Assembly (NCBI RefSeq): GCF_011603255.1
Contig: NZ_JAANCM010000001.1
Span: 434,001-498,000, forward strand
Direction of reading: 5' to 3'
DNA from: Ferranicluibacter rubi
Lineage (GTDB): Bacteria > Pseudomonadota > Alphaproteobacteria > Rhizobiales > Rhizobiaceae
Length of the DNA: 64,000 bases
Part shown: in pieces, positions 38,725-60,800 of the stretch
Layout: every line of letters starts with the position of its first letter
Position numbering within the stretch: position 1 is the first letter of the stretch
Notes under the pieces: generated by a model
The model's database searches: none
What the model saw: only the letters and a program-made list of their open reading frames with translations
What the model was told of the DNA's origin: nothing
Position numbers and translations under genes: made by a program

Positions 38725-39438
38725 TTATGCCTCCTTCGACGTGTAGAGCGCGCGGGAGCGTTCGAGGTGGCGCAGCATGGCCTGCTCCGTGGCATCGGCG
38801 TCGCGGGCGACGATGCAGTCGATGATGGATTGGTGCTCGGAAAGCGTCACGGTTTCCTTGCCGGTCCAGATCAGCATGTGCGTGTGGTAGCCGCGCAACC
38901 AGGCGAGCATAGCTTCGCTGACGGCGATATAGATAGGATTTCCGGAGATGCGGGCGATGCGGGTGTGAAACTCCATGTCGGCGGCGATGAAGGCGGCAGC
39001 ATCGTCCAGTGCCGCCTCCTGCCGAACGAGGATCGCCGCGAGGTCTGCGATATCGGCTTCAGTGGCCTTCACTGCGGCTTCCCGCGCCATGCCCCGCTCG
39101 AAGAAGATACGAGCGCTTTTCAGGTGCTCCAGCGTGTCGGAGGATTTCGCGAGCATCATCTGGGCCGTCGTATCCACCTGACGCAGGATCGACCGGGCCG
39201 TAAGCTCCAGCACCCGGGCGCGTTCTCCATGGGAGATGACGACGAGGCCCATATTGGCCAGTGCCTGCATCGCCTCGCGGATCGCCGGCCGCCCGACGCC
39301 GAAACGCTCCATCAGCTCCCGCTCCGAGGGCATTTCGTCGCCGGGATTAAGTTCGCCGGACGTGATCATCGCCTGCAGGCGGGAAAAGACCTCGTCGGAC
39401 AGTTTTCGGCGCGTGATGGTTTCGGTCGGCTGGCTCAT
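38725..39438 (-). CDS. FadR/GntR-family transcriptional regulator of the apiose-type cluster
   Basis: A 237-residue regulator. The N-terminal GntR winged helix is ITRRKLSDEVFSRLQAMI, then PGDEMPSERELMERFGVGRP and AIREAMQALANMGLVVISHG. The C-terminal FCD domain carries metal-ligand His/Asp candidates in ADMEFHTRIARISGNP and TLSEHQSIIDCI. It is divergent from the RuBisCO-like gene with 217 bases between the starts and is the obvious local regulator. In this family the effector is usually a small organic or sugar acid; an intermediate of the pathway is likely. The start at 39438 fits family length; ATG at 39468 is possible. Confidence 0.9.
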   Translation of the reverse strand: MSQPTETITRRKLSDEVFSRLQAMITSGELNPGDEMPSERELMERFGVGRPAIREAMQALANMGLVVISHGERARVLELTARSILRQVDTTAQMMLAKSSDTLEHLKSARIFFERGMAREAAVKATEADIADLAAILVRQEAALDDAAAFIAADMEFHTRIARISGNPIYIAVSEAMLAWLRGYHTHMLIWTGKETVTLSEHQSIIDCIVARDADATEQAMLRHLERSRALYTSKEA

Positions 39439-39587
39439 GAGGTTCCGGATATTTGTTCGATCCTGCATCTTCGCATGCCGCAACGCGCTTGGAAAAGGGA
39501 AACGCGTCCGCGCCTCGCTTTCTCCCCTGTCGCAACGCCTGCTGCTTCTGCGCATTTTCCGGTCATCGATACTTGCGTCATTGTTAT

Positions 39588-39602
39588 ACTCATTATACCA
39601 GT
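39588..39602. promoter_or_regulatory. Candidate FadR-type operator, copy 1
   Basis: The 15 bases ACTCATTATACCAGT recur identically at 42254-42268. On the minus strand TGGTATAATGA fits five of six fixed positions of the FadR/VanR-type consensus TnGTnnnACnA. Here the box overlaps a -10-like TATACT (39585-39590) upstream of the RuBisCO-like gene, as expected for a repressor site. Confidence 0.6.
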
Positions 39603-39655
39603 TCATCAACGACGATCTGCCGGAGCCGACAGGTCGAGACGGGGAGGAGAAGCCG

Positions 39656-40909
39656 ATGATCACCGTGACCTATCGCATCGAGACGACGGGAAGCGTCGAG
39701 GCCATGGCTGCCAAAATCGCCAGCGACCAGTCTACAGGGACCTTCGTGCCGGTTCCGGGTGAAACGGAAGAACTGAAAGCACGGGTTGCTGCACGGGTGA
39801 TCGCGATCCGGCCGCTTGAGCCCGCGACGACGCCGAGCTGGCCGGAAGCGCCATCGGATCACGGAACCATCCACCGGGCCGATGTGGACATCGCCTTTCC
39901 GCTCGATGCCGTGGGCACGGACCTCTCGGCGCTGATGACGATCGCCATCGGCGGCATCTTCTCCATCAAGGGCATGACGGGGCTTCGTGTCGTGGATCTC
40001 AAGCTGCCACCGGAATATGGTGCCGCCTATCCCGGCCCCCAGTTCGGCCTGCCGGGCAGCCGGCGGCTGACGGGCGTCGAGGGCCGGCCGATCATCGGCA
40101 CGATCGTCAAGCCGGCCCTGGGTTTGAGACCGATGGAAACGGCCGAACTGGTCGGCGAACTGATCGGCTCCGGCGTCGATTTCATCAAGGACGACGAAAA
40201 GCTGATGAGCCCGGCCTATTCGCCGCTGAAGGAGCGCGTCGCCGCCATCATGCCGCTGATCCTCGAGCATGAACAAAAGACCGGCAAGAAGGTGATGTAC
40301 GCCTTCGGCATCTCGCATACGGACCCCGACGAGATGATGCGCAACCACGACATGGTGCTCAGCGCCGGTGGCAATTGCGCCGTCGTCAATATCAACTCGA
40401 TCGGCATGGGCGGCATGGCGTTCCTCCGCAAGCGCTCCGGCCTCGTGCTGCATGCGCATCGCAACGGCTGGGATGTTCTGACCCGGCATCCCGGCATCGG
40501 CTTCGACTTCAAGGTCTGGCAGCAGTTCTGGCGGTTGCTTGGCGTCGATCAGTTCCAGATCAACGGTATCGGCGTAAAATACTGGGAGCCGGACGAGAGC
40601 TTCGTCGAATCCTTCAAGGCCGTGTCCACACCGCTCTTTTCGCCGGCGGATTGCCCGCTTCCGGTTGCCGGATCCGGGCAGTGGGGTGGGCAGGCGCCCG
40701 AAACCTATCGACGCACGGGACGGACGACCGATCTTCTCTACCTCTGCGGCGGCGGCATCGTCAGCCATCCCGGCGGACCGGCCGCGGGCGTGCATGCCGT
40801 GCAGCAGGCCTGGGAGGCCGCCGTTGCCGACATCCCGCTCGAAACCTACGCGCTCGACCACCCTGAGCTTGCTGCATCCTTGAAGACCTTCGGCGGAAAG
40901 GATGCCTGA
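39656..40909 (+). CDS. oiaX: RuBisCO-like protein, probable 3-oxo-isoapionate-4-phosphate transcarboxylase/hydrolase (OiaX)
   Basis: A 417-residue RuBisCO large-subunit homologue. It keeps GTIVKPALGL with the Lys equivalent to Lys175 (K152), and the carbamylation and metal motif IKDDE (K178, D180, E181 equivalent to K201, D203, E204). H268 in LHAHRN matches His294. It lacks the second Lys of KPKxG (A154) and any loop-6 Lys (PVAGSGQWGG), so it is not a carboxylase. Known OiaX enzymes cleave 3-oxo-isoapionate-4-phosphate to 3-phosphoglycerate and glycolate, with a carbamylated Lys. The sugar-acid kinase, dehydrogenase and lactonase genes downstream support this role; the methionine-salvage RLP (MtnW) is less likely since no mtn genes are present. 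The ATG at 39656 gives family length. Confidence 0.85.
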   Translation: MITVTYRIETTGSVEAMAAKIASDQSTGTFVPVPGETEELKARVAARVIAIRPLEPATTPSWPEAPSDHGTIHRADVDIAFPLDAVGTDLSALMTIAIGGIFSIKGMTGLRVVDLKLPPEYGAAYPGPQFGLPGSRRLTGVEGRPIIGTIVKPALGLRPMETAELVGELIGSGVDFIKDDEKLMSPAYSPLKERVAAIMPLILEHEQKTGKKVMYAFGISHTDPDEMMRNHDMVLSAGGNCAVVNINSIGMGGMAFLRKRSGLVLHAHRNGWDVLTRHPGIGFDFKVWQQFWRLLGVDQFQINGIGVKYWEPDESFVESFKAVSTPLFSPADCPLPVAGSGQWGGQAPETYRRTGRTTDLLYLCGGGIVSHPGGPAAGVHAVQQAWEAAVADIPLETYALDHPELAASLKTFGGKDA

Positions 40910-40910
40910 C

Positions 40911-42254
40911 ATGGCAGCGCCCCTGCTTCTCAGCTATTACGGCGATGATTTCACCGGCTCGACCGACGTCATGGAGGCGCTGGCCTCCCATGGCGTGGAG
41001 ACCGTGCTCTTCCTGCGCATTCCCGATGACGCGCTGCTGCAGCGCTTTGCCCATTGCCGCGCCATCGGCCTTGCCGGCACCAGCCGCAGCGAGACGCCGG
41101 CGTGGATGGATGAACACCTGACGCCGATCTTTCAATGGCTGAAAGCGCGGGAAGCGACCGTCTGCCACTACAAGGTTTGCTCGACCTTCGATTCGGCCCC
41201 TGCGGTCGGCAATATCGGCCGGGCGATCGAGATCGGGCTCGATGTCTTCGGACAGGGTCTCGCACCCCTTGTCGTCGGGGCACCGCAGCTCAAGCGCTAC
41301 ACGGCCTTCGGCCATTTGTTCGCCGGCTATCAAGGCGACGTCTATCGTATCGATCGCCATCCCGTCATGAGCCGGCATCCGGTGACACCGATGAACGAGG
41401 CCGATCTTACGCAGCATCTCGGGCACCAGACAGAACTGCCGGTGGCGCTGGCCGATCTCACCATGCTCACGGATGCGCAGATCGATGCGCGCGCCGCAAC
41501 GCTTGCCGGCAAGGGCATTCTGATGCTGGATGTGGACGGACCGGAGACGCAGAAGGCGGCAGGCGCGCAACTTCTCCGGCTTGCCAACCACGGTTCGCGG
41601 TTCATGGCGGGATCGTCGGGCGTCGAATATGCGCTGCTCCAGGCTTGGCGCTCCGCAGGGCTGGTCGAGGGCGCACGGGACTTTCCGTCTCCGGGTAAAG
41701 CAGACCGGATCGCGGTCGTCTCCGGCAGTGTCTCGCCGACCACGGAGCGGCAGATCCGGCAGGCGACCGGGGCGGACGGCTTCGACGGCGTGGCGCTCGA
41801 TCCTCTGGCTCTTCTCGGGGAGGATGGCGAAAGCGTTATCGACCGCGCGATCCGGGAGGCGCAGACGAGCCTTGCCGCCGGCCGCAGCGTCATCCTGCAT
41901 ACCGCGCTTGGTCCGCAGGCCGACCGTGGCGGCGAGATCGACCGGGTGGTGGGCAGCCGGCATCGGCTGGGTCAGATGCTTGGCCGGATTCTTCTACAGT
42001 TGATCGAGAGGGAGGCCCTTGGCCGTGCCGTCATCGCCGGGGGCGACACGTCGAGCCATGCGCTCGGTGCGCTGAAGGTCGATGCCCTCACGACCCTGCT
42101 GCCGCTGCCGGAAACGCCGGGATCGCCGCTTTGCACCGCCCATGGCTTGCATGCCCCGACCAACGGATTGCAGATTGCATTGAAGGGCGGACAGGTGGGA
42201 CGCGATGGCTACTTCGCCCAGATCCGCGACGGACGCGCGACATCGGCTGGTTGA
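40911..42254 (+). CDS. oiaK: Four-carbon acid sugar kinase family protein, probable 3-oxo-isoapionate kinase (OiaK)
   Basis: A 447-residue kinase of the DUF1537 family (N-terminal substrate-binding and C-terminal nucleotide-binding domains). The N-terminus has YYGDDFTGSTDVMEAL with conserved Asp residues; the C-terminus has VIAGGDTSSHALGALKVDAL, the nucleotide-binding GGDTS. Family members phosphorylate threonate, erythronate, and related acids; beside a RuBisCO-like protein they act on 3-oxo-isoapionate. Its start at 40911 is preferred: GGAAAGG (40895-40901) is nine bases upstream, while the overlapping ATG at 40902 abuts it. Confidence 0.85.
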   Translation: MAAPLLLSYYGDDFTGSTDVMEALASHGVETVLFLRIPDDALLQRFAHCRAIGLAGTSRSETPAWMDEHLTPIFQWLKAREATVCHYKVCSTFDSAPAVGNIGRAIEIGLDVFGQGLAPLVVGAPQLKRYTAFGHLFAGYQGDVYRIDRHPVMSRHPVTPMNEADLTQHLGHQTELPVALADLTMLTDAQIDARAATLAGKGILMLDVDGPETQKAAGAQLLRLANHGSRFMAGSSGVEYALLQAWRSAGLVEGARDFPSPGKADRIAVVSGSVSPTTERQIRQATGADGFDGVALDPLALLGEDGESVIDRAIREAQTSLAAGRSVILHTALGPQADRGGEIDRVVGSRHRLGQMLGRILLQLIEREALGRAVIAGGDTSSHALGALKVDALTTLLPLPETPGSPLCTAHGLHAPTNGLQIALKGGQVGRDGYFAQIRDGRATSAG

Positions 42255-42268
42255 CTCATTATACCAGT
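42254..42268. promoter_or_regulatory. Candidate FadR-type operator, copy 2, in a promoter upstream of apsD
   Basis: Second copy of ACTCATTATACCAGT, in the 82-base gap between oiaK and the dehydrogenase gene. It overlaps a -35-like TTGACT (42251-42256); 17 bases on is a -10-like TTACAT (42274-42279). This suggests a second, separately controlled promoter inside the cluster. Confidence 0.55.
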
Positions 42269-42336
42269 CGCCCTTACATAGCCTGACCTGATCGGCTGGG
42301 CTGGACCCTGAACGACACTTTTCAAGGACATTGACC

Positions 42337-43371
42337 ATGCCGAGTTTTCGAGGAGCGCTGATCGGTTGCGGCTTCTTTGCCGTCAACCAGATGCATGCCT
42401 GGCAGGATGTGGAAGACGCCGAGATCGTCGCCATCTGCGACCGCGACCCGGAGCGCCTGCGGATCGTCGGCGACCAGTTCGGGATCGCGCGCCGCTATAG
42501 CGACGCCGCGCAGATGATGGCGGATGGCGGCTTCGATTTCGTCGACATCGCCACCACGGTCAACAGTCACCGCGCGCTGGTGGAGATGGCGGCTTCGCAC
42601 AGCCTGCCGGTCATCTGCCAAAAGCCTTTCGCGCCGACGCTCCGCGATGCCAAAGCCATGGTCGCGGCCTGCGAGGCAGTGGCCGTTCCCCTGATGATCC
42701 ACGAGAATTTCCGCTGGCAGACGCCGATCCAGGCGGTGCGCAAGGCGCTCGAAACGGCCCAGATCGGCACGCCATTCTGGGGCCGCTTCTCGTTCCGCTC
42801 CGGCTATGACGTGTTCTCGGGCCAGCCCTATCTGGCCGAAGGCGCGCGCTTCATCATCGAGGATCTGGGCATCCACACGCTCGACATCGCCCGCTACATT
42901 CTGGGCGACGTCACGACGCTCACTGCCCGCACCAAGCGCGTCAATCCTGCGATCAAGGGCGAGGATGTCGCGACGATCCTGCTCGATCACGAAAACGGCG
43001 CGACCTCGGTCGTCGATGTCAGCTATGCCACCAAGGCCTCCGTCGAGCCTTTCCCGGAGACTCTGATCGAGCTGGATGGGACCGAAGGCTCGTTGCGGCT
43101 GATGCAAGGGTACCGGCTGGAGATCACGAATGCATCCGGCACGGAGATCCACGACGTATCACCGACCCTCCTCCCCTGGGCATCGCGCCCGTGGCACAAT
43201 ATCCAGGAAAGCGTCCTTGCCATCCAGCAGCACTGGACGGAACGACTGGCGAGCGGCGCGGAAACCTCGACGTCCGGAGCCGACAATCTGAAGACCTTCG
43301 CACTGGTGGAAGCGGCCTATGAAAGTGCGGCGACGCTGCAGCCGGTCGCGATCGGGCCGCTGATCGCATGA
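42337..43371 (+). CDS. apsD: Gfo/Idh/MocA-family dehydrogenase, probable D-apiose dehydrogenase (ApsD)
   Basis: A 344-residue NAD(P)-dependent oxidoreductase. Rossmann motif ALIGCGFFAVNQMHAW at the N-terminus, then AICDRDPERL. The usual catalytic EKP is CQKPFAPT here. The second half has the substrate-binding beta-sheet domain with FIIEDLGIHTLDIARYI (conserved Asp/His pair). ApsD oxidises D-apiose to D-apionolactone, the first pathway step; assignment rests on the neighbours. The ATG at 42337 follows AAGGA by nine bases and is better than the TTG at 42331. The stop overlaps the next start (ATGA). Confidence 0.8.
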   Translation: MPSFRGALIGCGFFAVNQMHAWQDVEDAEIVAICDRDPERLRIVGDQFGIARRYSDAAQMMADGGFDFVDIATTVNSHRALVEMAASHSLPVICQKPFAPTLRDAKAMVAACEAVAVPLMIHENFRWQTPIQAVRKALETAQIGTPFWGRFSFRSGYDVFSGQPYLAEGARFIIEDLGIHTLDIARYILGDVTTLTARTKRVNPAIKGEDVATILLDHENGATSVVDVSYATKASVEPFPETLIELDGTEGSLRLMQGYRLEITNASGTEIHDVSPTLLPWASRPWHNIQESVLAIQQHWTERLASGAETSTSGADNLKTFALVEAAYESAATLQPVAIGPLIA

Positions 43372-45311
43372 CGGACGATGCGCTCGCGTTCCGCCTGACC
43401 GGCACCGTTCGCACTGAGCCGGCTTCCCGCGTGCTCGCGGCTGGAGGACTTTCGGCGGAGCTTTCCGGCGGCGCACTGCGCAACATCCGCTTTGACGGTG
43501 TGGAGGTGCTTCGCGCCGTGTCCTTCCTCGTGCGCGATCGTGACTGGGGCACCTACGATCCCGAGATCGAAGATCTTGTCGTGGATCAGCGCGCGGACGG
43601 ATTCACCGTCATTTACAGCGCGACATGCCATGGCCCGGAGGGGACGCAGCTCGTGCTTCAGGCCCGGATCGAAGGCGACGACCATGGTCGGCTCGGCTTT
43701 TCCGGCACGGCTCGGTCCGAAACAGGATTCGAGACCAATCGCTGCGGCTTCTGCGTGCTCCACCCGATCGTCGGCGTCGCGGGAACGCCGGTTCGGGTCG
43801 AGCATGTCGACGGGACCCTTGAGGCGACCGTCCTGCCGGACCTTATCGAACCCTGGCAGCCCTTCAAGGAGATGCGCGCCATCACCCATCAGGCTCTACC
43901 GGGCGTCAGCGTGGAATGCCGGATGGAGGGCGATACGTTCGAGATGGAGGATCAGCGAAACTGGTCGGATGCCTCTTACAAGACCTATGTCCGCCCGCTT
44001 GCTCTGCCTTGGCCCTACCGGGTAGAGGCGGGCGTGGATGTTGCACAGCAGGTCACGTTGCAGGTCGTGGATGAGCGGTCTCGCCATGCTGATTCACGCT
44101 CGGCGCAGCCGGAAGGGCCGGTGAAACTAAGGCTTCAGGAAGGCCTTGCACAACCGCTGCCGCCCATCGGGCTCGTCGTCACGCCTGAGGAAGCGGCAGC
44201 GACGCAAGCCTTGCTTGACGCCGGCCTCGGCCCGCAGGCGCAGGCGTTGCTCTTCCATTTCGATCCGCTCGCGGGCCACGATGGTTCGGCATTCGATGCC
44301 TTCGCGACTTTTGCGCGCAAACATCCGGGATCGTCCACGCTGGAGATCGCGCTGCCCTGCCGGGAGCCCTTTGGTGACGAACTGCGTGCGATGGCGGCAG
44401 CGATGAACAAAGCAGGCTTCACGCCTGATGCCGTCATGGTGTCTCCCGCCGTCGATCGGCAATCGACACCGCCCGGCAGCGCATGGCCGGACTGCCCGCC
44501 GCTCGACGACATCTATGCCGCAGCGCGGGCGGCATTCCCATCCCAAGCGCTCGGTGGCGGCATGCTCAGCTACTTCACCGAACTGAACCGCAAGCGCGTG
44601 CCGGCGGCAGCACTCGATTTCATCAGCCATTGCACCAACCCGATCGTGCATGCGGCGGACGATCGCAGCGTCATGCAGACGCTGGAGGCGCTGCCCTTCA
44701 TCACCCGCTCGGTGCGCGCGATCTACAGCGACCGGCGCTATCGCATCGGGCCCTCCACGATCCCCATGCGCCAGAACCCCTATGGCAGCCGGACGATGGA
44801 CAATCCGGATGGCAGCCGGATTCCGATGGCGAACCGGGACCCGCGGCAGAACGGCCTTTTCGCCGCCGCCTACGCCATCGGCTATGCCATCTCGGTCGCA
44901 CCGGCCGGGCTCGACCAGTTGACGCTTTCGGCCCTGACGGGCCCGTTCGGCCTGATCGCCGGCGCAAACGAACCCATTCCCGAGGGCGGGCGGCGACCGC
45001 TGTTTCATGCCGTCGCCATGCTTGCGGATCTCGCCGGCGCGAAGGCCACCATCATTTCATCCAACCGGCCAGATGCGGTTCTCGCAATGTGCGCGCAGAG
45101 AAAGGATGGCCGGACGATCCTTGCGGTCAACCTGACGCCGCTGCCGCAGGCACTCGATCTGTCGGCGCTCGGCATCGCTCCTGACGCATCGGCCTATCGG
45201 CTGGATGCGGAAACGATGATCGATGCTGCGGTCGGTGCGCTGAAAGCCGAACGGCTCGGCACCGGGGACGTTCGGCTCGGCGCCTATGGCGTGCTGCGGA
45301 TCGACGGCTGA
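43368..45311 (+). CDS. apnL: Probable D-apionate lactonase (ApnL)
   Basis: A large 647-residue cytoplasmic protein without a signal peptide. The N-terminal third (1-215) looks like a beta-sandwich, and the middle (about 230-500) has alternating beta/alpha segments like a TIM barrel (for example PIGLVVTPEEA, FHFDPLAGHDG, GGGMLSYFTELNRKR). ApnL proteins, which open D-apionolactone to D-apionate, have this size and are encoded next to ApsD. I see no conventional lipase or SMP-30 lactonase motif. The function is therefore mainly inferred from context, with a translationally coupled ATGA overlap to apsD. Confidence 0.72.
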   Translation: MTDDALAFRLTGTVRTEPASRVLAAGGLSAELSGGALRNIRFDGVEVLRAVSFLVRDRDWGTYDPEIEDLVVDQRADGFTVIYSATCHGPEGTQLVLQARIEGDDHGRLGFSGTARSETGFETNRCGFCVLHPIVGVAGTPVRVEHVDGTLEATVLPDLIEPWQPFKEMRAITHQALPGVSVECRMEGDTFEMEDQRNWSDASYKTYVRPLALPWPYRVEAGVDVAQQVTLQVVDERSRHADSRSAQPEGPVKLRLQEGLAQPLPPIGLVVTPEEAAATQALLDAGLGPQAQALLFHFDPLAGHDGSAFDAFATFARKHPGSSTLEIALPCREPFGDELRAMAAAMNKAGFTPDAVMVSPAVDRQSTPPGSAWPDCPPLDDIYAAARAAFPSQALGGGMLSYFTELNRKRVPAAALDFISHCTNPIVHAADDRSVMQTLEALPFITRSVRAIYSDRRYRIGPSTIPMRQNPYGSRTMDNPDGSRIPMANRDPRQNGLFAAAYAIGYAISVAPAGLDQLTLSALTGPFGLIAGANEPIPEGGRRPLFHAVAMLADLAGAKATIISSNRPDAVLAMCAQRKDGRTILAVNLTPLPQALDLSALGIAPDASAYRLDAETMIDAAVGALKAERLGTGDVRLGAYGVLRIDG

Positions 45312-45399
45312 GCGCGCATTTTTCCGAAGCGGCGGCGTGCCGTTTGGGCTATCCTCATCGCTCGCGACTGTGATCGCCGCCCCCGGAGGAGCCCCGCTT

Positions 45400-47139
45400 A
45401 TGACCCTCATCCGCACCCCTCTCGTGCATCTGACCCTTGCGATCGGCCTTGCCGTATCCCCTGCACAGGCGGCCTCGCCGCAGCCGGTTGCGGGCGAGAA
45501 CGGCATGGTCGTCACGGCCCAGCATCTGGCGTCGGATGTCGGCGTGGAGATCCTGAAGCAGGGCGGCAATGCGGTGGATGCCGCAGTTGCGGTCGGCTAT
45601 GCGCTGGCCGTCGTCTATCCCACGGCCGGCAATATCGGCGGCGGCGGCTTCATGACGGTGCGCCTTGCCGACGGCCGCACCAGCTTTCTTGATTTCCGCG
45701 AGCGGGCGCCACTAGCCGCGACCAAGACGATGTATCTCGACGAAAAGGGCGAGATCGCCAAGGGCCGCAGCACGGATGGCTATCTCGCCGTCGGCGTGCC
45801 CGGATCGGTGGCCGGTTTCGAGGCCGCGCGCACCCGCTTCGGCACCCTGTCGCGCGAGGCACTTCTGGCACCGGCGGTCAAACTCGCTGAGCAGGGCTTC
45901 ACCCTCGATGGCGGCGATGTCACTTCCCTCGGCAACAGCCTGAAGAAGCTCGGCCGCGACCCCGCCGCCGCCGCGATCTTCCTGACGCCCGACGGCCAAG
46001 CCCCGAAGATCGGTGCGACTCTGGTTCAGCCGGACCTGGCGCGCAGCCTGGCTGCGATCTCGAAGACGGGGCCGGACGCGTTCTACAAGGGCGCGATCGC
46101 GGACGATATCGTCAAGGCGAGCGCGGAGAAGGGCGGCATCCTGAAGAAGGCAGATTTCGAGCGCTACGCGGTGCGCGAATTGAAGCCGGTCACCTGCACC
46201 TATCGCGGCTACGAGATCATCTCCTCCCCTCCGCCGAGCTCCGGCGGCGTCATCCTCTGCGAAATCCTCAACATTCTCGAAGGCTATCCGCTCGGTGAAC
46301 TCGGCTCCGGTTCGGCGGCGACGGCGCATGTGATGATCGAGGCGATGCGCTATGCCTATGTCGACCGCAACTCGGCGCTCGGCGACCCCGACTTCGTCGA
46401 GAACCCGGTGGAGAAGCTGCTCGACAAGGCCTATGCGCAGGAGATCCGCGGCAAGATCGACCTTGAGAAGGCCGGCATTTCCGCCCAGCTTGCACCCAAG
46501 GGGCTCGGGGAAAGCCACGAGACGACGCATTACTCGATCATGGACAGCGCAGGCAACGCGGTCTCGGTCACCTATACACTCAACGGCTCCTTCGGCGCAG
46601 GCGTCGTCGCGCCCGGCACCGGCATCCTGCTCAACAACGAAATGGACGACTTCACCTCCAAGCCCGGCGCACCGAACCTCTACGGGCTCGTGCAGGGAGA
46701 GGCCAATGCGATCGCTCCGGGCAAGACGCCGCTCTCCTCCATGAGCCCGACCATCGTGACCAAGGACGGCAAACCGTTCATGGTCATCGGCAGCCCCGGC
46801 GGCGCCCGCATCATCACCATCACGCTCGAAGCCATCCTCAACGTCATCGACCATGGCATGACGCTGCAGGAGGCGATCGATGCGCCGCGGCTTCATCACC
46901 AATGGATGCCGGACACGGTGGCGATCGAGCCCTTCGCCTTGTCCGCCGACACGTTGAAGGTGCTTCAGGGCATGGGGCACGATGTCGGCCCGGACAAGAA
47001 CTGGCCGGTCTGGGGTCAGGCCGCCGGCATCCTCGTCGGCGGCAGGACGGCGGCGGAGGCGGGCGAAGGTTCGACAGGCGCCCGATATTACGGCACCATG
47101 GACAGCCGCGCCGCCTCGGGCGCGGCGCGGGGGTATTGA
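45400..47139 (+). CDS. ggt: Gamma-glutamyltransferase
   Basis: A 579-residue periplasmic enzyme that cleaves or transfers the gamma-glutamyl group of glutathione. It has a signal peptide (LVHLTLAIGLAVSPAQA), the large subunit with ILKQGGNAVDAAVAVGYAL and NIGGGGFMTVR, and the autoprocessing site before Thr375 in HETTHYSIMD, which becomes the catalytic N-terminal Thr of the small subunit. GSPGGARIITITLEAILNV follows. The start at 45400 has GGAGGA nine bases upstream. It starts 88 bases after apnL but is not obviously part of that pathway. Confidence 0.95.
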   Translation: MTLIRTPLVHLTLAIGLAVSPAQAASPQPVAGENGMVVTAQHLASDVGVEILKQGGNAVDAAVAVGYALAVVYPTAGNIGGGGFMTVRLADGRTSFLDFRERAPLAATKTMYLDEKGEIAKGRSTDGYLAVGVPGSVAGFEAARTRFGTLSREALLAPAVKLAEQGFTLDGGDVTSLGNSLKKLGRDPAAAAIFLTPDGQAPKIGATLVQPDLARSLAAISKTGPDAFYKGAIADDIVKASAEKGGILKKADFERYAVRELKPVTCTYRGYEIISSPPPSSGGVILCEILNILEGYPLGELGSGSAATAHVMIEAMRYAYVDRNSALGDPDFVENPVEKLLDKAYAQEIRGKIDLEKAGISAQLAPKGLGESHETTHYSIMDSAGNAVSVTYTLNGSFGAGVVAPGTGILLNNEMDDFTSKPGAPNLYGLVQGEANAIAPGKTPLSSMSPTIVTKDGKPFMVIGSPGGARIITITLEAILNVIDHGMTLQEAIDAPRLHHQWMPDTVAIEPFALSADTLKVLQGMGHDVGPDKNWPVWGQAAGILVGGRTAAEAGEGSTGARYYGTMDSRAASGAARGY

Positions 47140-48964: not shown

Positions 48965-50767
48965 CTAGGCGCGGTCGAGGGCGAACAGGACCGAGAGGGG
49001 CGCCATGCCCTGCGTGCTGTGCGTGCCGTAGAGCGTTTCGCCGGTTGCCGGCGGCAGGTCCGCGGCTACATCGCCGAAATTGGCGCGCAGCTGCAGGCGG
49101 CGGTCACCGAGCTGCCAGTCGATGGCAAGCAGCCTGCCTTCCGCCATAAGGACCGTGCCGGCCGAGAGCGTGTTGGGAGCGGCAACCAGCAGGGGGATGA
49201 TGGCCCGTTTGCGGATGGCAATCAGCTCACGATAGAGGGCACGCCATTTCTGGCCTTCGTCGGTTTCGGACTTGGCCCAGTCGAGGCGCGTGTTCTCCAT
49301 CGTCTCAATGGCGTTGGGGTCGGCAACGTCCTCGACGGATTTGCCGTCCGGAAGGCCGCCAAAATTGTCCATATCCGTGCGCCGGCCTTCGCGCACGGCC
49401 TTGCCGAGTTCGCCGTCATAGTCGGTGAAGAACAGGAAGGGACGCGTCTCGCCATATTCCTCGCCCATGAACAGCATGGGGATATGCGGCGCCAGCATGG
49501 TGACGACGGTGAGCGCCTCTAGCATCTCCTTCGACGTCAGCGTGATCAGCCGATCGCCGAAGGCCCGGTTGCCGATCTGGTCGTGGTTCTGAAGAAAGCC
49601 GACGAAAGCTTCCATCGGCACCGGCTCGCTCATTTCCACCGGCTTCTGCCCGGGATAGATATAGCCTTCGGTCAACGCGCGGGCGAAGTTTTCGACCGGC
49701 TTGTCGATGAACTTGCCGTAGTAACCGTTCTTCTCACCCGTCGCGACCACATGGGCCGCGTGGTGATAGTCGTCGTTCCAGTCGGCATCATAGAGCAGCG
49801 CTTCATTGTCGTCGCTGCGGCGCAGTTCGATGTGGTTTTCCGGATCCTCGGTGACAAGGTGGATGTGGCGGCCTTCGAACTCCGAGCGGGCGCGGCGCGC
49901 GATCTCGATCAGGACATGCGTTTCCGCATCGTCGAAGATCATGTCGATCGCATCGAAGCGCAGGCCGTCAAGCCGGAACTCGCGCAGCCAGTAGAGCGCG
50001 TTTTCGACGAAGAAATCGCGCACCGGCTGCTTGTTGTAGGCGATGGCCGCACCCCAGGGTGTCTTCTTCCCCTCGCGGAAGAAGTCGGGTGCATAGGCGC
50101 TCAGATAATTCCCGTCGGGTCCGAAGTGATTGTAGACGACATCCATGTAGACCATGAGGCCGAGCCCGTGCGCTGCATCGATGAAGGCTTTGAGATCATC
50201 CGGCGAGCCATAGGCATTGTGCGGCGCGTAGGGATAGACGCCATCATAGCCCCAGCCCCGCGTGCCGCCGAAGTGCGAGACCGGCATGAGCTCGACGGCC
50301 GTGATGCCGGTGTCCGCGATATCGGCCAGCTTGTCGATGGCCGCCCGGAAGGTGCCTTCCGGCGTGAACGTACCGACATGGAATTCATAGAGGATTGTTT
50401 CGGCCCAGGGCATGCCGGTCCAGCCGGCATGCTGCCACTGGTAGGCGTCGGGATCGACCAGCACAGCGGGGCCATGAACGTCTTCCGCCAGCGCGCGCGC
50501 TGCCGGGTCCGGCACGACCTTTCCATCCGGCAGGACGAAGGCGTACGTTGCGCCGGGCTTTGCGTCGGGAATGACGGCCTCGAACCAGCCCTCGCCAGCC
50601 TTGGCCATCTCGTGGTCCTTGCCATCCAGCCGCAGCGTCAGCGTGTCTTCACCCGGCGCCCAGAGGCGGAACCGGGCGCCGCCCTCGGCCAAAAGTTCAG
50701 GTCCCCAGGCTGTCGTCTGCCGGTTTTCGGAAGGTCGTACGCTCTCGGTTGTCATCAGGGAGTTCAT
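48965..50767 (-). CDS. treZ: Malto-oligosyltrehalose trehalohydrolase
   Basis: TreZ (GH13) releases trehalose from maltooligosyl-trehalose. The 600-residue protein has an N-terminal CBM48-like domain (ARFRLWAPGEDTLTLRL), then the GH13 barrel: ELMPVSHFGGTRGWGYDGVY, MDVVYNHFGPDGNYL, the nucleophile Asp in LDGLRFDAIDMI, the acid Glu in LVTEDPENH, and the late FLQNHDQIGNRAFGDR. TreZ-specific GWGYDGVYPYAPHNAYG is present. Start at 50767 (GAGGA four bases upstream of CAGG); ATG at 50755 is possible. It is divergent from glgX. Confidence 0.93.
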   Translation of the reverse strand: MNSLMTTESVRPSENRQTTAWGPELLAEGGARFRLWAPGEDTLTLRLDGKDHEMAKAGEGWFEAVIPDAKPGATYAFVLPDGKVVPDPAARALAEDVHGPAVLVDPDAYQWQHAGWTGMPWAETILYEFHVGTFTPEGTFRAAIDKLADIADTGITAVELMPVSHFGGTRGWGYDGVYPYAPHNAYGSPDDLKAFIDAAHGLGLMVYMDVVYNHFGPDGNYLSAYAPDFFREGKKTPWGAAIAYNKQPVRDFFVENALYWLREFRLDGLRFDAIDMIFDDAETHVLIEIARRARSEFEGRHIHLVTEDPENHIELRRSDDNEALLYDADWNDDYHHAAHVVATGEKNGYYGKFIDKPVENFARALTEGYIYPGQKPVEMSEPVPMEAFVGFLQNHDQIGNRAFGDRLITLTSKEMLEALTVVTMLAPHIPMLFMGEEYGETRPFLFFTDYDGELGKAVREGRRTDMDNFGGLPDGKSVEDVADPNAIETMENTRLDWAKSETDEGQKWRALYRELIAIRKRAIIPLLVAAPNTLSAGTVLMAEGRLLAIDWQLGDRRLQLRANFGDVAADLPPATGETLYGTHSTQGMAPLSVLFALDRA

Positions 50768-51128
50768 CCTGTCCTCGTATCGGTTCTGGGTTCGGCGCAC
50801 TGTCTGCGCCCGTCCGGCTGGCCTGCGATCCGCCCTTCAACAAGCGGATCCGGGCAAAGGTTCCGGGCGCACTCGCGTGTTTGCTGCATTGCGAAGGAAA
50901 TGCGTCGCGTGGCCACGAAATCCAGTCCACGAAGCGACGGACAGGCAATGTTTATTGCTGACTGAACTTGTTCATGCTCCGGCCGTTAGCATGCGATAGA
51001 CGCAGACCGGCACCTTCCGGCTCCCGGCAGGCCAGCACGACGTCGCCGAAAAACAAGATTCCCTCTTCGAGAGGGAACAAAATGATGCGACGCACAATTT
51101 CTGATCCGATCAACACAGGGGACGTTTC
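50768..51128. other. Intergenic region between divergent treZ and glgX
   Basis: 361 bases with no gene that I can support. It must contain the promoters for treZ and glgX. Around 51050-51110 it turns AT-richer before the glgX RBS (GGGGACG). No operator-like palindrome was evident. Confidence 0.5.
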
Positions 51129-53219
51129 ATGGACGCCAAAGTCAATCAATACGCGGTCGAGCCGGGATCGTGGCATACGCTCGGGGCAACGCCCGACAAG
51201 GACGGCGTCAATTTCGCGATCTTTTCGGCACATGCCGAACGCATCGAACTCTGCCTTTTCGATGACAGTGGCGCCGTCGAAGTTGCCCGCATCGAGCTTC
51301 CCGAATACACGAACGAGATCTGGCACGGCTACATCCCCGGCCTGAAGCCCGGCGCTCTCTATGGCTATCGTGTCCACGGACCGTTTGATCCGGAGCGAGG
51401 GCATCGCTTCAATCCGAACAAGCTTCTGGTGGACCCCTACGCCCGCGAACTGGTTGGCGACGTGGAATGGTCGAAGGCGCATTTCGCCTATGACATGGAC
51501 GCCGAGACCGACAAGGATCTGACCTTCAACACGCTCGACAGCGCGTCGGTGACGCCGAAGGGCCGCGTCATCGATCCGAAGACCTACGACTGGAAGGGCG
51601 ATCGCGGCCCAATCATCCCCTGGTCGAAGACGATCTTTTACGAAACGCATGTGAAGGGCTTCACCAAGCTGCACCCGGCCATTCCGGAAAACATGCGTGG
51701 CACCTTCGACGGCATGGGCCACAAGGCAGCCGTCGACTATTTGAAGAGCCTCGGCATTACCTCGGTCGAACTGCTACCGACCCACTTCTTCCCCGATGAC
51801 AGCATGCTGGTCGACAAGGGGCTGCACAATTACTGGGGCTACAACACGCTCGGCTTCTTCGCACCAGCCACGCGTTATTACGGTCCACGCGCTCTCGATG
51901 GCTTCCGCGACATGGTTCGCGCCCTGCATGATGGCGGGCTCGAGGTCATTCTCGACGTGGTCTACAACCACACGGCCGAAGGCAACGAGCTTGGGCCGAC
52001 GCTCTCCTTCAAGGGCATCGATAACTTCTCCTACTACCGCACCCTGCCCGACAATCACCGCTACTACATCAACGACACCGGCACCGGGAACACGGTCAAC
52101 ACCTCGCATCCGCGCGTGCTGCAGATGGTGACGGATTCTCTGCGCTACTGGGTCGAGGAAATGCATGTCGATGGCTTCCGTTTCGACCTCGGCACCATTC
52201 TCGGCCGCGAGCCGGAAGGTTTCGACGAGCGCGGTGGTTTCTTCGATGCGGTCTCGCAGGATCCGGTTCTCTCCAAAGTCAAGCTCGTCGGCGAACCCTG
52301 GGACATCGGTCCCGGCGGCTATCAGGTCGGAGGCTTTCCGCCCGGCTGGGCCGAGTGGAACGACAAGTATCGCGACACGGTCCGCGATTACTGGATGGAC
52401 ACAGACGGCACGGCGCCCGACTTCGCGGCTCGCCTGTTCGGCTCCGGCGATATCTACGACCTTCGCGGCCGTCGCCCCTGGGCGAGCGTCAACTTCGTCG
52501 CCGCACATGATGGCTTCACCATCAACGATCTCGTTTCCTACAACGAGAAGCACAACGATGCGAATGGCGAAGACAACAAGGACGGCCACGGCGACAACCG
52601 CAGCTTCAACTACGGCGCCGAGGGTCCGACCGAAGACGAGACCATCAACGCCACCCGCGAACGTCAAAAGCGGAACTTCCTTGCGACGCTGCTGCTGTCG
52701 CACGGCACGCCGATGATTCTCGGCGGTGACGAGTTCGGCCGCAGCCAGATGGGCAACAATAACGGCTACTGCCAGGACAGTGATATCAGCTGGATCCACT
52801 GGGAGAACCTGCCGCCCAGCGCCGATGTGCTACGCGACTTCGTCCGCCGGCTGACGACACTGCGCGCGACCCAGCCGCTGCTGCACCGCGAGAACTGGCG
52901 CGACGGCATGGTCATCACCTGGCTGAATGCAGGTGGCGGCGAGCAGACCGAGGAGCAGTGGCAGGACGGCGGCGGCACCACCATCGGCGCCCTGATCTCG
53001 CGCGACGATCTCGTCGGAAAGGACGGCGTCTGGTCGCATATTCTGATGATCTTCAACCCGCATGATGGCGTCGTTCCCTTCGCCCTTCCCGAGTCGCCCA
53101 GCGGCAGCTGGGTGCTGGAACTGACGACGGACGATCCGGCTGTCGAAGCGCAGCCTGTGGATGCAGGAGAAGCGTTCGACATGCAGGCCCGCAGCCTCGC
53201 GGTCTTCCGCCCGGCCTGA
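51129..53219 (+). CDS. glgX: Glycogen debranching enzyme GlgX
   Basis: An isoamylase-type GH13 enzyme that removes short branches from phosphorylase-limit glycogen. The 696-residue protein has the CBM48 domain with LGATPDKDGVNFAIFSAHAE at the N-terminus, and catalytic motifs VELLPTHFF, LDVVYNHTAEGNELG, nucleophile Asp in VDGFRFDLGTIL, acid Glu in KLVGEPWDIG and NFVAAHDGFTINDLVSYNEK. The late MILGGDEFGRSQMGNNNGYC is diagnostic of GlgX. It faces glgA, giving the glycogen pair together with treZ. Confidence 0.95.
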   Translation: MDAKVNQYAVEPGSWHTLGATPDKDGVNFAIFSAHAERIELCLFDDSGAVEVARIELPEYTNEIWHGYIPGLKPGALYGYRVHGPFDPERGHRFNPNKLLVDPYARELVGDVEWSKAHFAYDMDAETDKDLTFNTLDSASVTPKGRVIDPKTYDWKGDRGPIIPWSKTIFYETHVKGFTKLHPAIPENMRGTFDGMGHKAAVDYLKSLGITSVELLPTHFFPDDSMLVDKGLHNYWGYNTLGFFAPATRYYGPRALDGFRDMVRALHDGGLEVILDVVYNHTAEGNELGPTLSFKGIDNFSYYRTLPDNHRYYINDTGTGNTVNTSHPRVLQMVTDSLRYWVEEMHVDGFRFDLGTILGREPEGFDERGGFFDAVSQDPVLSKVKLVGEPWDIGPGGYQVGGFPPGWAEWNDKYRDTVRDYWMDTDGTAPDFAARLFGSGDIYDLRGRRPWASVNFVAAHDGFTINDLVSYNEKHNDANGEDNKDGHGDNRSFNYGAEGPTEDETINATRERQKRNFLATLLLSHGTPMILGGDEFGRSQMGNNNGYCQDSDISWIHWENLPPSADVLRDFVRRLTTLRATQPLLHRENWRDGMVITWLNAGGGEQTEEQWQDGGGTTIGALISRDDLVGKDGVWSHILMIFNPHDGVVPFALPESPSGSWVLELTTDDPAVEAQPVDAGEAFDMQARSLAVFRPA

Positions 53220-53228
53220 TCATTTGAG

Positions 53229-53260
53229 ACCGGCCCGCACTACGCGGGCCGGTTCAATTT
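53229..53260 (+). terminator. Intrinsic terminator of glgX
   Basis: ACCGGCCCGC (53229-53238) pairs perfectly with GCGGGCCGGT (53244-53253) over a 5-base loop, followed by TCAATTT. It lies nine bases after the glgX stop codon. Confidence 0.75.
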
Positions 53261-53272
53261 CCGAACAAGAAA

Positions 53273-53303
53273 AAGCCGGTCAGACGCAAGGTCAGGCCGG
53301 CTT
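53273..53303 (-). terminator. Terminator of glgA
   Basis: AAGCCGG (53273-53279) pairs with CCGGCTT (53297-53303); on the minus strand the stem is followed by T-rich TTTTTC. It ends the glgA transcript that converges with glgX. Confidence 0.6.
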
Positions 53304-53327
53304 CTTTGGTTCAATACGATGATAGGA

Positions 53328-54785
53328 TCAGGCCGTCGCCTTTTGCGCCTTTGCGATCACCTTGCCATACAGCTCAGCATATTGCTCGGCGCTGCGCTCC
53401 CAGGAGAAATTGGCCTTCATGCCCTGGTTCTGCAGACGAGCCCATTTCTTCGGGTCGCGATAGGCGTGGAAGGCCCGGTGGATGGCGAGGCGGAGATTGT
53501 CGCTGGTGGCAGGGTGGAACTGGAAACCGGTGGCGACGCGCGCGGACATGGCGGCGTCGTTGGCGTCGATGATCGTTTCCGACAAGCCGCCCGTGCGGGA
53601 GACGACGGGTACGGCACCATAGCGCAGTGCATAGAGCTGCGTCAGGCCGCAAGGCTCGAAGCGGGAGGGCTGGATGATAATATCCGTGCCGCCGTGCACG
53701 AGATGCGCCGTTTCCTCGTCATAGCCGATACGGACGCCGATTTTGCCAGGATGTCGCCCCGCAGCGAGCAGTAGCTGCGTTTCGATGTCCTTGGAGCCCT
53801 TGCCCAGCACGATCAACTTGCCGCCGAGCGCCGCAATCTCCTCCGCGACCTCAGCCAGCATGTCGCCGCCCTTCTGCCAGGTAAGGCGGGTGACGGCTGC
53901 GAGAACAGGTCCGGGGGTCGCGTCCAGCCGGAACGTCTCGAGCAGCCGGGCCCGGTTGATGCCCCGGTTACGGATATGGCGGACGTCGTATCGTGCCGGC
54001 AGATAGGGGTCGGTGGCAGGGTCCCAGATCTCGCTGTCGATGCCGTTGACGATACCGGTGAAGGTATCGAGACGCGACAGAAGCGCGCCTTCCATGCCCA
54101 TTCCGAGTTCCGGCGAAACGATCTCGCGGGCATAGGTCGGGCTGACGGTGGTGATCGCGCTCGCGGTGCGGATGCCACCCTTGAGATAGCTCATGTCGCC
54201 GTAATATTCGAGGCAATCGATCGACAGCGCCTCGGGCGGAAGACCGATATCCTTCAGGTGGGCGGCGGAATACTGGCCCTGAAATGCGAGATTATGGATG
54301 GTGAGAACCGACGGGATCGCCCGGGCATTGGCGGAGTAGCGCATATAGACGGATGTCAGCGCCGTCTGCCAGTCATGGGTGTGCACGAGATCCGGCGTCC
54401 AGTCCGGCAGAAGCCCGCCTGCGACGGCCGAGGCCACGTAGGAGAGAACCGCGAAGCGCTTCCAGTTGTCGGGGTGGTCGATGCCATCCTCGCCGACATA
54501 GGGGCCGCCGGGACGATCATAGAGCGACGGTGCGTTCAACACGAGAAGATCGAGACCCTGGCATTCCGCTTCGAGCAGCCAGGCAGGGTTACCGAAGAGA
54601 TCCGGGAAAAAATGCACCGGCCGCGCATCTCTTACCTCGGCGAGAACGGAGGTATAGCCGGGGATCAGGCTGCGGGTGCGATACCCGCGCGCGGAAAGGA
54701 CTTTCGGCAGTGCCCCGGTCACGTCGGCAAGGCCGCCGGTCTTGATCAGGGGGAAGATTTCCGACGTCACAGACAGTACGTTCAC
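53328..54785 (-). CDS. glgA: Glycogen synthase GlgA
   Basis: ADP-glucose:glycogen glucosyltransferase (GT5), 485 residues. The N-terminus VNVLSVTSEIFPLIKTGGLADV contains the ADP-glucose-binding KTGGL. Later it has WQTALTSVYMRYSA, AITTVSPTYAREI, the second KxGG-like RLTWQKGGDML and GGTDIIIQPSRFEPCGLTQL near the C-terminus. The start is a GTG at 54785 with GAGGA 11 bases upstream; it gives family length, while the open frame continues a further 39 codons upstream without conservation. The other glg genes (glgB, glgC, glgP) are not in the window. Confidence 0.95.
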   Translation of the reverse strand: MNVLSVTSEIFPLIKTGGLADVTGALPKVLSARGYRTRSLIPGYTSVLAEVRDARPVHFFPDLFGNPAWLLEAECQGLDLLVLNAPSLYDRPGGPYVGEDGIDHPDNWKRFAVLSYVASAVAGGLLPDWTPDLVHTHDWQTALTSVYMRYSANARAIPSVLTIHNLAFQGQYSAAHLKDIGLPPEALSIDCLEYYGDMSYLKGGIRTASAITTVSPTYAREIVSPELGMGMEGALLSRLDTFTGIVNGIDSEIWDPATDPYLPARYDVRHIRNRGINRARLLETFRLDATPGPVLAAVTRLTWQKGGDMLAEVAEEIAALGGKLIVLGKGSKDIETQLLLAAGRHPGKIGVRIGYDEETAHLVHGGTDIIIQPSRFEPCGLTQLYALRYGAVPVVSRTGGLSETIIDANDAAMSARVATGFQFHPATSDNLRLAIHRAFHAYRDPKKWARLQNQGMKANFSWERSAEQYAELYGKVIAKAQKATA

Positions 54786-59565: not shown

Positions 59566-60333
59566 GTGAAAACGAACGGCATCTGGGTTGGAACGAGCTG
59601 GAAGATGAACAAGACGCTCAGCGAGGCCATGGCCTTCGCCGACGGCCTGGGGACGAGCGACGCCGCGCGCGATCCGCGCATCCAGCGCTTCGTCATCCCG
59701 CCCTTCACCGCCGCGCGCGAGGTCAAGCAGCGGCTGTCCGGCACCAGCGTCAAGGTGGGCGCGCAGAACATGCACTGGGACGATGCCGGCGCCTGGACCG
59801 GCGAAATCTCCGCACCGATGCTGACCGATTGCGGGCTCGATCTCGTGGAGCTCGGTCATAGCGAACGGCGCGAGCATTTCGGCGAGACCGACCGGACCGT
59901 CGGCCTGAAGACCGCAGCCGCCGTTCGTCACGGCCTGACGCCGCTGATCTGCATCGGTGAGACGCTGCCCGAGCGCGAGGCCGGCGAGGCGGACGCCGTT
60001 CTCAAGCGGCAGGTCGAAGGCGCGCTGTCCGGGCTCACCGGCGCTGACCGGGAAAAGCCGGTCCTTCTCGCCTACGAGCCCGTCTGGGCCATCGGCGTCA
60101 ACGGCATTCCGGCATCGGCCGACTATGCCGACGACCGCCATGCCCGCATCGCCGAGGTGGCGAAGGCCTGTCTCGGCGTTTCCGTGCCCGTTCTCTATGG
60201 CGGCAGCGTCAATCCCGGCAATTGCGCGGAGTTGATCGCCAAGCCCCATATCGACGGCCTCTTCATCGGCCGTTCCGCCTGGAATGTCAGTGGTTATCTC
60301 GACATCCTGACCCGCGTTTCATCCGCTCTCTGA
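59566..60333 (+). CDS. Triose-phosphate isomerase family protein (TpiA2/EryH-like)
   Basis: A 255-residue TIM barrel: TSWKMNKTLSEA (catalytic Lys in WKMNK), LVELGHSERREHFGET (catalytic His), LAYEPVWAIGVNGIPAS (catalytic Glu), and the phosphate-binding PVLYGGSVNPGNCAELI. Residue spacing fits TpiA. Between a DeoR regulator and rpiB it matches EryH, an isomerase of L-tetrulose/erythrulose-phosphate in erythritol catabolism, not the glycolytic enzyme; sequence alone cannot separate them. The start is GTG at 59566, with AGGAG six bases upstream. Confidence 0.85.
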   Translation: MKTNGIWVGTSWKMNKTLSEAMAFADGLGTSDAARDPRIQRFVIPPFTAAREVKQRLSGTSVKVGAQNMHWDDAGAWTGEISAPMLTDCGLDLVELGHSERREHFGETDRTVGLKTAAAVRHGLTPLICIGETLPEREAGEADAVLKRQVEGALSGLTGADREKPVLLAYEPVWAIGVNGIPASADYADDRHARIAEVAKACLGVSVPVLYGGSVNPGNCAELIAKPHIDGLFIGRSAWNVSGYLDILTRVSSAL

Positions 60334-60362
60334 CATCAACAAAAGCCTGAAAGGAAACAGCC

Positions 60363-60800
60363 ATGAAAATCGCCATCGGAGCCGACAGCGCCGGCAAGCC
60401 GCTTCTCGACGTCATCGCCAAGCATCTCGCGACCCGCAATGATATCGAGGTCACCGACCTCAGCCAGCAGGGCTTCTATGCGGACCTGTCGCAGAAGCTC
60501 GCACAGACCATCGTCGACGGCGAGAACGAGCGCGGCATCCTCTTCTGCGGCACCGGCATCGGCGTCAGCATTTCTGCCAACAAGGTGCCCGGCATCCGGG
60601 CGGCGCTGACGCACGATACCTATTCGGCGGAACGCGCCGCAAAGTCGAACAATGCCCAGATCATTACCATGGGCGCCCGCGTCATCGGGCCGGAACTCGC
60701 CAAGGCGATCGTCGATACCTGGCTTGCTTCCGAGTTCGATCCGAGTGGCTCGTCGGCCGACAACGTAAAGGCGATCGATCGTCTCGACACCGCGAAATAA
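60363..60800 (+). CDS. rpiB: RpiB/LacAB family sugar-phosphate isomerase (EryI-like)
   Basis: A 145-residue isomerase of the RpiB/LacAB fold. It starts [15 protein letters not shown] with a typical GADSAG-type motif and contains [20 protein letters not shown], with the catalytic Cys in FCGTGIG. Then [20 protein letters not shown] and [13 protein letters not shown]. In the ery operon this enzyme (EryI) isomerises D-erythrose-4-phosphate; ribose-5-phosphate is the substrate of ordinary RpiB. It is 29 bases after the TpiA-like gene and ends the operon, followed by a terminator. Confidence 0.88.

What the first reader, a model, noticed from the sequence alone, without database searches (positions are those of the whole stretch)
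38725..45311. D-apiose-type catabolic cluster built on a RuBisCO-like protein, with ApnO and a transporter missing
Seen: a FadR-type regulator, RuBisCO-like protein, DUF1537 kinase, Gfo/Idh/MocA dehydrogenase and a large lactonase-like protein in one cluster. Established: in the bacterial D-apiose pathways ApsD, ApnL, ApnO, OiaK and OiaX convert apiose to 3-phosphoglycerate and glycolate. Four of those five fit here. Inference: the oxidoisomerase step (ApnO) and uptake must be encoded elsewhere, or this set handles a related branched sugar acid with a different intermediate step. Apiose is a plant cell-wall sugar, so this suits a plant-associated bacterium.
Basis: partly seen in the sequence, partly recalled or inferred. 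Interest (0 to 1): 0.75.

Follow-up and report, generated by a model that had tools for sequence, protein, structure and literature searches.

The report
Apiose pathway split between two replicons
This is the chromosomal half of a known bacterial pathway for eating the plant cell-wall sugar D-apiose; the 'missing' enzyme and sugar importer lie elsewhere in the same genome behind the same short control site, so one operon seems to have been broken in two without losing its shared switch.

Summary
The five genes are real and form a D-apiose cluster: NanR-like regulator, OiaX, OiaK-type kinase, ApsD, ApnL. The 'missing' ApnO and ABC transporter are in the same genome, on contig C33, in the gene order seen in unsplit relatives. 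Two isomerases that the OiaX route would need (LerI-like, DerI) lie in the window at 59566-60800. OiaX is filed as a decarboxylase, so the expected product is L-erythrulose 1-phosphate, not 3-phosphoglycerate plus glycolate. One congener, and 68 of 80 related loci, keep oiaX to apsD collinear. In five of seven genomes of the genus, the window's included, the apnO-transporter block lies on another contig (a repC-bearing one in the best assembly); a sixth has apnO in both places. A 15-base site, ACTCATTATACCAGT, stands before oiaX, before apsD and before the relocated apnO: three exact copies in each of these six genomes, two in the unsplit seventh. Best reading: an operon divided into unlinked operons that one repressor still controls. 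The pathway is known; the split and the inferred operator were not found in ten paper searches, but the primary 2018 paper was not available. Nothing was assayed; repressor binding, reactions and the order of events are inferred.

The parts
38725..39438 (-). NanR-like GntR/FCD regulator, divergent from oiaX
   Evidence: start ATG checked
39588..39602 (.). Operator-like site 1, ACTCATTATACCAGT, between the regulator and oiaX
   Evidence: a site with at most 2 mismatches is found here in 80 of 80 loci. Binding not tested
39656..40909 (+). oiaX, 3-oxo-isoapionate-4-phosphate decarboxylase (RuBisCO-like protein)
   Evidence: NF042437 774.5 of 700 bits; only copy in the genome
40902..42254 (+). oiaK-type kinase, DUF1537/four-carbon acid sugar kinase family
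   Evidence: Best model OiaK, 448.1 bits, below cut-off 700; kinases of whole clusters score 462 and 473
42254..42268 (.). Operator-like site 2 at the oiaK-apsD junction, where apnO and the transporter stand in unsplit relatives
   Evidence: compare L122 and L124
42337..43371 (+). apsD, Gfo/Idh/MocA dehydrogenase (alternative start TTG 42331)
   Evidence: 619 bits to PDB 5uhw; 5uhw equals the apsD of the Rhizobium rhizogenes cluster L047 but for residue 1
43368..45311 (+). apnL, D-apionate lactonase
   Evidence: NF049900 950.9 of 750 bits
58657..59535 (+). DeoR-type regulator upstream of lerI-derI; link to apiose not shown
59566..60333 (+). lerI-like gene, triose-phosphate-isomerase family
   Evidence: 75% to the TIM-type gene inside the R. 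etli apiose cluster; the generic triose-phosphate isomerase model is also passed (417 of 293 bits)
60363..60800 (+). derI, D-erythrulose-4-phosphate isomerase
   Evidence: NF051858 257.2 of 240 bits; 88% to the R. etli cluster gene

Best explanation
The window holds the chromosomal part of a complete D-apiose pathway. Proposed steps: the ABC transporter encoded on contig C33 imports D-apiose; ApsD oxidises it to a lactone; ApnL opens the lactone to apionate; ApnO (C33) rearranges apionate to 3-oxo-isoapionate; the OiaK-type kinase phosphorylates it; OiaX decarboxylates it to L-erythrulose 1-phosphate; the LerI-like enzyme and DerI turn this into D-erythrose 4-phosphate. In the ancestor of the genus the genes oiaX to apnL formed one cluster with a second promoter/operator region before apnO. 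Operator, apnO and transporter were copied to another replicon; the transporter and then apnO were lost from the chromosome, which left the old operator in front of apsD-apnL. One NanR-like regulator would now serve three equal sites in two places of the genome. Shown by sequence: gene families, places, site copies, gene trees. Inferred: reactions in this organism, uptake of apiose, repressor binding, and the order copy then loss. Reaction steps and product names are recalled pathway knowledge apart from the enzyme names in NCBIfam and PMC11747546.
For: Family scores. ApnO candidate and transporter on C33 in relatives' order; ApnO candidate 421 bits to PDB 5t57. The R. etli cluster's mature binding protein is the crystallised 5ibq/4ry0. 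G013 has the whole cluster at this chromosomal place between the same neighbours; 68 of 80 loci are collinear. Five of seven genus genomes are split with the same new neighbours, G010 has apnO in both places. G008: cluster on a 3.67 Mb contig without repC, block on a 1.17 Mb contig with repC. Site: three exact copies in each of six rearranged genomes, two in G013, reversed-pattern control 0 in 7 of 7. Core and transporter trees both place the six as sister to G013, support 1.0.
Against: No assay. No NCBIfam model for ApnO or ApsD rang, so these two names rest on position, PDB relatives and recollection. The kinase is below the OiaK cut-off. LerI/DerI have no copy of the site within 3 mismatches and may serve another pathway. 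G010 as the intermediate has support 0.78 in the core tree and is unresolved in the block tree, and its apnO copies look rearranged. The replicon of C33 is not proven for the window's own genome: repC matches lie on C1, C14 and C39. The promoter scan found nothing at the sites. The empty insertion site was not seen.
Confidence: 0.8

Rival explanations
1. The C33 block did not move within the lineage: the chromosomal apnO and transporter were lost and a block from another strain came in on a plasmid.
For: The block lies on a repC-bearing contig in G008 and G010; block tree is poorly resolved inside the six.
Against: In the transporter tree (76 taxa) and the ApnO tree (82 taxa, G010 not included) the genus blocks form one clade with G013, supports 1.0 and 0.995; the insertion neighbours are shared. 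Import from a close congener is not excluded.
Confidence: 0.15
2. The RLP here is a transcarboxylase/hydrolase giving 3-phosphoglycerate and glycolate.
For: That activity exists in the same wider family (PMC6302742, passage).
Against: OiaX decarboxylase model passed (774.5 of 700), as by the R. rhizogenes and R. johnstonii proteins (777.5, 780.2, 776.5); LerI- and DerI-type genes stand in 19 of 80 related loci and in the window. No model for the other enzyme appeared among the hits, so the two were not compared directly.
Confidence: 0.07
3. The set handles a related branched sugar acid with another intermediate step and needs no ApnO.
For: No ApnO beside the cluster; ABC binding proteins of this kind are annotated as ribose-type.
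Against: ApnO candidate and transporter exist in the genome with the same site before them and sit inside the cluster in G013 and 68 of 80 loci.
Confidence: 0.04
4. The split is an assembly artefact.
For: The assembly has 42 contigs and the block lies 2 kb from a contig end.
Against: The oiaK-apsD junction is inside an 807 kb contig; the same junction and the same block neighbours occur in four other assemblies, one of seven contigs.
Confidence: 0.02

Closest known systems
D-apiose pathway through an RLP decarboxylase (Carter et al. 2018, not held and not read; known here from NCBIfam names and passages of PMC6302742 and PMC11747546)
   Same: Enzyme set ApsD, ApnL, ApnO, OiaK, OiaX; PMC11747546 (passage) lists the same five activities in one gene cluster of a Rhodobacteraceae strain that grew on D-apiose
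   Different: Here the genes lie in two unlinked places, with the site copied to both
Whole apiose clusters of R. etli CFN 42 p42f, R. johnstonii pRL12, Pararhizobium qamdonense p2
   Same: Same genes, same order, same regulator; binding protein of the R. etli one is PDB 5ibq/4ry0
   Different: apnO and transporter stand between oiaK and apsD; R. etli also has TIM- and RpiB-type genes inside the cluster
Apiose cluster of Escherichia/Pectobacterium (PMC13001218, section on apiose read)
   Same: Bacterial growth on D-apiose from a gene cluster
   Different: Isomerase-type route with apsI or putative oxidoreductases; no RLP was found by the term search in that paper
NanR of E. coli (PMC8012715, start of abstract in a listing)
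   Same: GntR-type repressor; its operator repeats GGTATA, and the site here reads TGGTATA on the other strand
   Different: E. coli operator is a threefold repeat for sialic-acid genes; here single sites before apiose genes
Movement of chromosomal DNA to a second replicon in Sinorhizobium meliloti (PMC5940162, abstract)
   Same: Genes from the chromosome now on another replicon and tied into regulation across replicons
   Different: There a large region; here one operon is cut and its control site is present in both parts

Membership tests
OiaX | Curated equivalog score | tested here: met
   774.5 bits, cut-off 700
OiaX | RuBisCO-type active-site motifs | tested here: met
   KDDE and H-x-H-R align with RuBisCO 3kdo; which residues are catalytic is recalled
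OiaX | Decarboxylation of 3-oxo-isoapionate 4-phosphate | not testable with these tools
   Needs an assay
OiaK | Curated equivalog score | tested here: not met
   448.1 of 700; R. etli and Pararhizobium kinases from whole clusters also fail at 473 and 462. Filed only as OiaK-type
ApnL | Curated equivalog score | tested here: met
   950.9 of 750
ApsD | Close match to the dehydrogenase of a rhizobial apiose cluster | tested here: met
   619 bits to 5uhw, which equals the L047 cluster protein but for residue 1; that 5uhw is D-apiose dehydrogenase is recalled
ApnO | Member of the PGDH_C family at the apnO position | tested here: met
   PF16896 249.7 bits; 5t57 421 bits; 83% to the cluster gene of P. 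qamdonense
ApnO | Curated ApnO model | tested here: inconclusive
   No such model appeared among NCBIfam hits for it or for the P. qamdonense gene
Apiose ABC transporter | Binding protein close to the apiose-cluster one of R. etli | tested here: met
   547 bits to 5ibq, which equals the mature R. etli cluster protein
Apiose ABC transporter | Binds D-apiose | not testable with these tools
   That 5ibq holds apiose is recalled; no title showing it was returned
Complete decarboxylase-type apiose pathway | All steps from uptake to erythrose 4-phosphate encoded | tested here: met
   Window plus C33, by family only; LerI also passes the generic triose-phosphate isomerase model
One regulon | Same site before each transcription unit and nearly nowhere else | tested here: met
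   Exact copies 3 in six genomes, 2 in G013; one extra one-mismatch site in G009; control 0 in 7 of 7
One regulon | Regulator binds the site | not testable with these tools
   No binding data

The most novel reading that the evidence does not exclude
A natural series of operon fission in one genus: whole operon on the chromosome (G013), moved copy plus left-behind apnO (G010), and a clean split between replicons (five genomes), with the operator present in both parts so that one chromosomal repressor governs a pathway that needs both replicons. The same site would also mark uptake of apiose-containing sugars and an apiosidase in other rhizobia (L079), a wider apiose regulon.
Probability: 0.55. 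Interest if true: 0.5.

Novelty: new variant of a known kind. Interest (0 to 1): 0.42.

Why it matters
It turns a 'missing step' into a located one and corrects the expected products. It offers a testable case of how an operon can be divided between replicons and stay under one switch, which bears on how bacteria come to depend on a second replicon. The inferred site is a handle for finding apiose-related genes in other plant-associated bacteria.

Tried and rejected
Empty site: G013 and three genomes of other genera (G022, G042, G024) were searched for the exonuclease gene beside the block; no match in 4 of 4, and as the tool warns this shows little. So the site before insertion was not seen.

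Promoters: the scan gave 0 promoter-like matches in window 39400-45500 (shuffles 1.0) and 0 in the C33 stretch (shuffles 1.1). A TTGACT, 17 bases, TTAGAT/TTACAT arrangement seen by eye at the apnO and apsD sites is only a suggestion. Folding the 82-base oiaK-apsD gap gave z -1.6, nothing notable.

ApnL structure (mean pLDDT 79.2, pTM 0.85) resembles glycoside hydrolases of the barrel plus beta-sandwich kind, but TM by query is 0.29-0.44 in the 50 rows shown; no function was drawn from it. A threonate or oxo-tetronate kinase reading of the kinase was rejected on scores.

Papers: the ten searches listed no report of a split apiose operon or an apiose operator. They saw listings only; Carter et al. 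2018 is not held, so what it prints on rhizobial clusters or regulators was not checked. Seen of papers: passages of PMC11747546, PMC6302742, PMC13001218 (35, plus one section), PMC8112048, PMC7535918; abstract and outline of PMC5940162; start of abstract of PMC8012715 in a listing.

Rows and biases: the 80 loci are the best 80 of 417, so close relatives are favoured. L003, L004, L005 lie at the same coordinates as the clusters of G011, G012, G009 and are not counted twice. Trees: of 86 taxa, 62 had all five core genes, 76 all four transporter genes, 82 an unbroken ApnO; G010 is missing from the ApnO tree. Supports are FastTree's local ones. Sites (up to 2 mismatches): 7 of 80 loci have none before apnO: L003-L005 (split), L023 and L079 (apnO lies outside the fetched stretch; exact sites before it in L132 and L131), L036 and L058 (3 mismatches). 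Eight sites are near none of oiaX, apnO, apsD; one search printed seven of them, six before a binding-protein gene and one (L068:15921) not. With 3 mismatches 66 loci have two sites, 10 three, 3 four, 1 one.
Full report
What is there. The five genes are present and contiguous. OiaX (774.5 of 700 bits) and ApnL (950.9 of 750) pass curated models; the kinase matches OiaK best but at 448 of 700; the regulator passes the 'NanR' model, 349.6 of 260. The dehydrogenase is closest to PDB 5uhw, 619 bits, and the apsD of the Rhizobium rhizogenes cluster L047 equals 5uhw but for residue 1. The low kinase score is shared: kinases of the whole R. etli and Pararhizobium clusters score 473 and 462. All 20 of 20 rhizobial kinases scanned match the OiaK model, best E 2.3e-143, and also, more weakly, the oxo-tetronate kinase model, best E 1.3e-49.

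The missing parts. In R. etli CFN 42, P. qamdonense and R. johnstonii the cluster also holds a PGDH_C-type gene and a four-gene ABC transport set between the kinase and the dehydrogenase. In the window's own genome these lie on contig C33: ApnO candidate 2043-2870 (83%), binding protein 2973-3914 (95%), then DUF2291, ATPase and permease genes up to 7250. The ApnO candidate has no curated model; its name rests on PF16896, 421 bits to PDB 5t57, position and recollection. The mature R. etli binding protein is identical to 5ibq and 4ry0; the 4ry0 title names it RHE_PF00037 of R. etli, in a search made with the model of a relative's protein, L008. That 5ibq holds D-apiose is recalled. OiaX occurs once in the genome.

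The lower half. OiaX is named a decarboxylase. A review passage gives decarboxylation and transcarboxylation/hydrolysis of the same substrate for the RLPs of Agrobacterium radiobacter K84 and Xanthobacter (PMC6302742). The decarboxylase product, L-erythrulose 1-phosphate (recalled), needs two isomerases. A LerI-like gene (59566-60333) and DerI (60363-60800, 257.2 of 240 bits) are in the window, 14 kb downstream, behind a DeoR-type regulator. The LerI-like protein also passes the ordinary triose-phosphate isomerase model; its name rests on 75% identity to the gene in the R. etli cluster and on its neighbour. Both genes occur in the fetched stretch of 19 of 80 loci. They have no copy of the shared site.

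How the operon was divided. Of 80 loci, 68 are collinear from oiaX to apsD with apnO and transporter between, 6 have apnO but not this transporter, 3 are split like the window, 2 are inverted or cut by a contig end, 1 lacks oiaK beside oiaX. The genus has seven held genomes. G013 keeps the whole operon at this chromosomal place, between the same flanking genes. G000, G008, G009, G011 and G012 carry the block on another contig, next to shared neighbours. In G008 the cluster is on a 3.67 Mb contig and the block on a 1.17 Mb contig that also carries repC. In the window's genome C33 itself showed no repC. G010 has apnO in both places and no chromosomal transporter; both copies look rearranged in that draft, about 97-100% alike in pieces. 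The core tree (62 taxa) and the transporter tree (76) both put the six rearranged genomes as sister to G013, support 1.0; G010 branches first in the core tree (0.78) but not in the transporter tree. Copying followed by loss fits best; import from a close congener is not excluded.

The shared site. ACTCATTATACCAGT stands before oiaX, at the oiaK-apsD junction and before the C33 apnO. With at most 2 mismatches it is before oiaX in 80 of 80 loci, before apnO in 73 of 80, before apsD in the 3 split loci. Twenty shuffled motifs gave 0.1 hits per locus in five loci at 3 mismatches. Whole genomes, one mismatch allowed: three exact in each of G000, G008, G009, G010, G011, G012, two exact in G013, and one further inexact site in G009; reversed pattern 0 in 7 of 7. 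In the window there are two, both exact, against 0.20 expected at 3 mismatches; 1 of 100 shuffles also reached two. E. coli NanR binds GGTATA repeats (PMC8012715, listing) and the site reads TGGTATA on the other strand, so the adjacent NanR-like protein is the likely ligand. Binding is inferred.

Wider use of the site. In L032, L057, L066, L068, L075 and L079 a site with 1 or 2 mismatches stands before another kind of solute-binding-protein gene (Pfam checked in L032 and L079; the others by similarity). In L079 an apiosidase-like gene (PF13204) follows in the same run; L075 also has a relative of it. In L079's genome other pathway genes lie on another contig, with an exact site before apnO (L131): it looks like a separate scattering of the cluster.

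Judgement. The pathway is known and this is a member of it by the tests that could be run, with the kinase only OiaK-type. The two-place arrangement with a shared site is the new part. Interest is moderate. Main doubts: no assay, draft assemblies, and the unread primary paper. On checking I lowered the probability of the bold reading from 0.60 to 0.55, because the order of events rests on G010, whose placement and apnO copies are uncertain.

Noticed in passing
L079:11299-16049; L032:18310, L057:18266, L066:18341, L068:18271, L075:16781: The same site stands before another type of sugar-binding-protein gene; in L079 an apiosidase-like gene (PF13204) follows, which hints at a wider apiose regulon.
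   Followed up: partly
L122:7648-8491 and L123:9505-10924 (genome G010): Two apnO copies, both with repeated or missing pieces in the draft; real rearrangement or assembly tangle cannot be told apart.
   Followed up: partly
43368-45311: ApnL has no Pfam or PDB sequence match; its predicted fold resembles glycoside hydrolases weakly (TM by query up to 0.44).
   Followed up: partly
L131 and L079 (one genome, G004): Another genus with apiose genes on two contigs in a different arrangement, each part with the site.
   Followed up: partly
40902-42254: Rhizobial OiaK-type kinases fall far below the cut-off of the NCBIfam OiaK model in each of the three scored here; the model looks narrow.
   Followed up: partly
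45286-47139: A gamma-glutamyltransferase ORF starts inside the end of apnL on the same strand and is a constant neighbour in the genus.
   Followed up: no
48965-54902: ORFs that look like glycogen/trehalose metabolism genes (from reading and 43 translations; not searched).
   Followed up: no
60892-63174: An ORF that looks like a heavy-metal P-type ATPase (from reading the translation; not searched).
   Followed up: no
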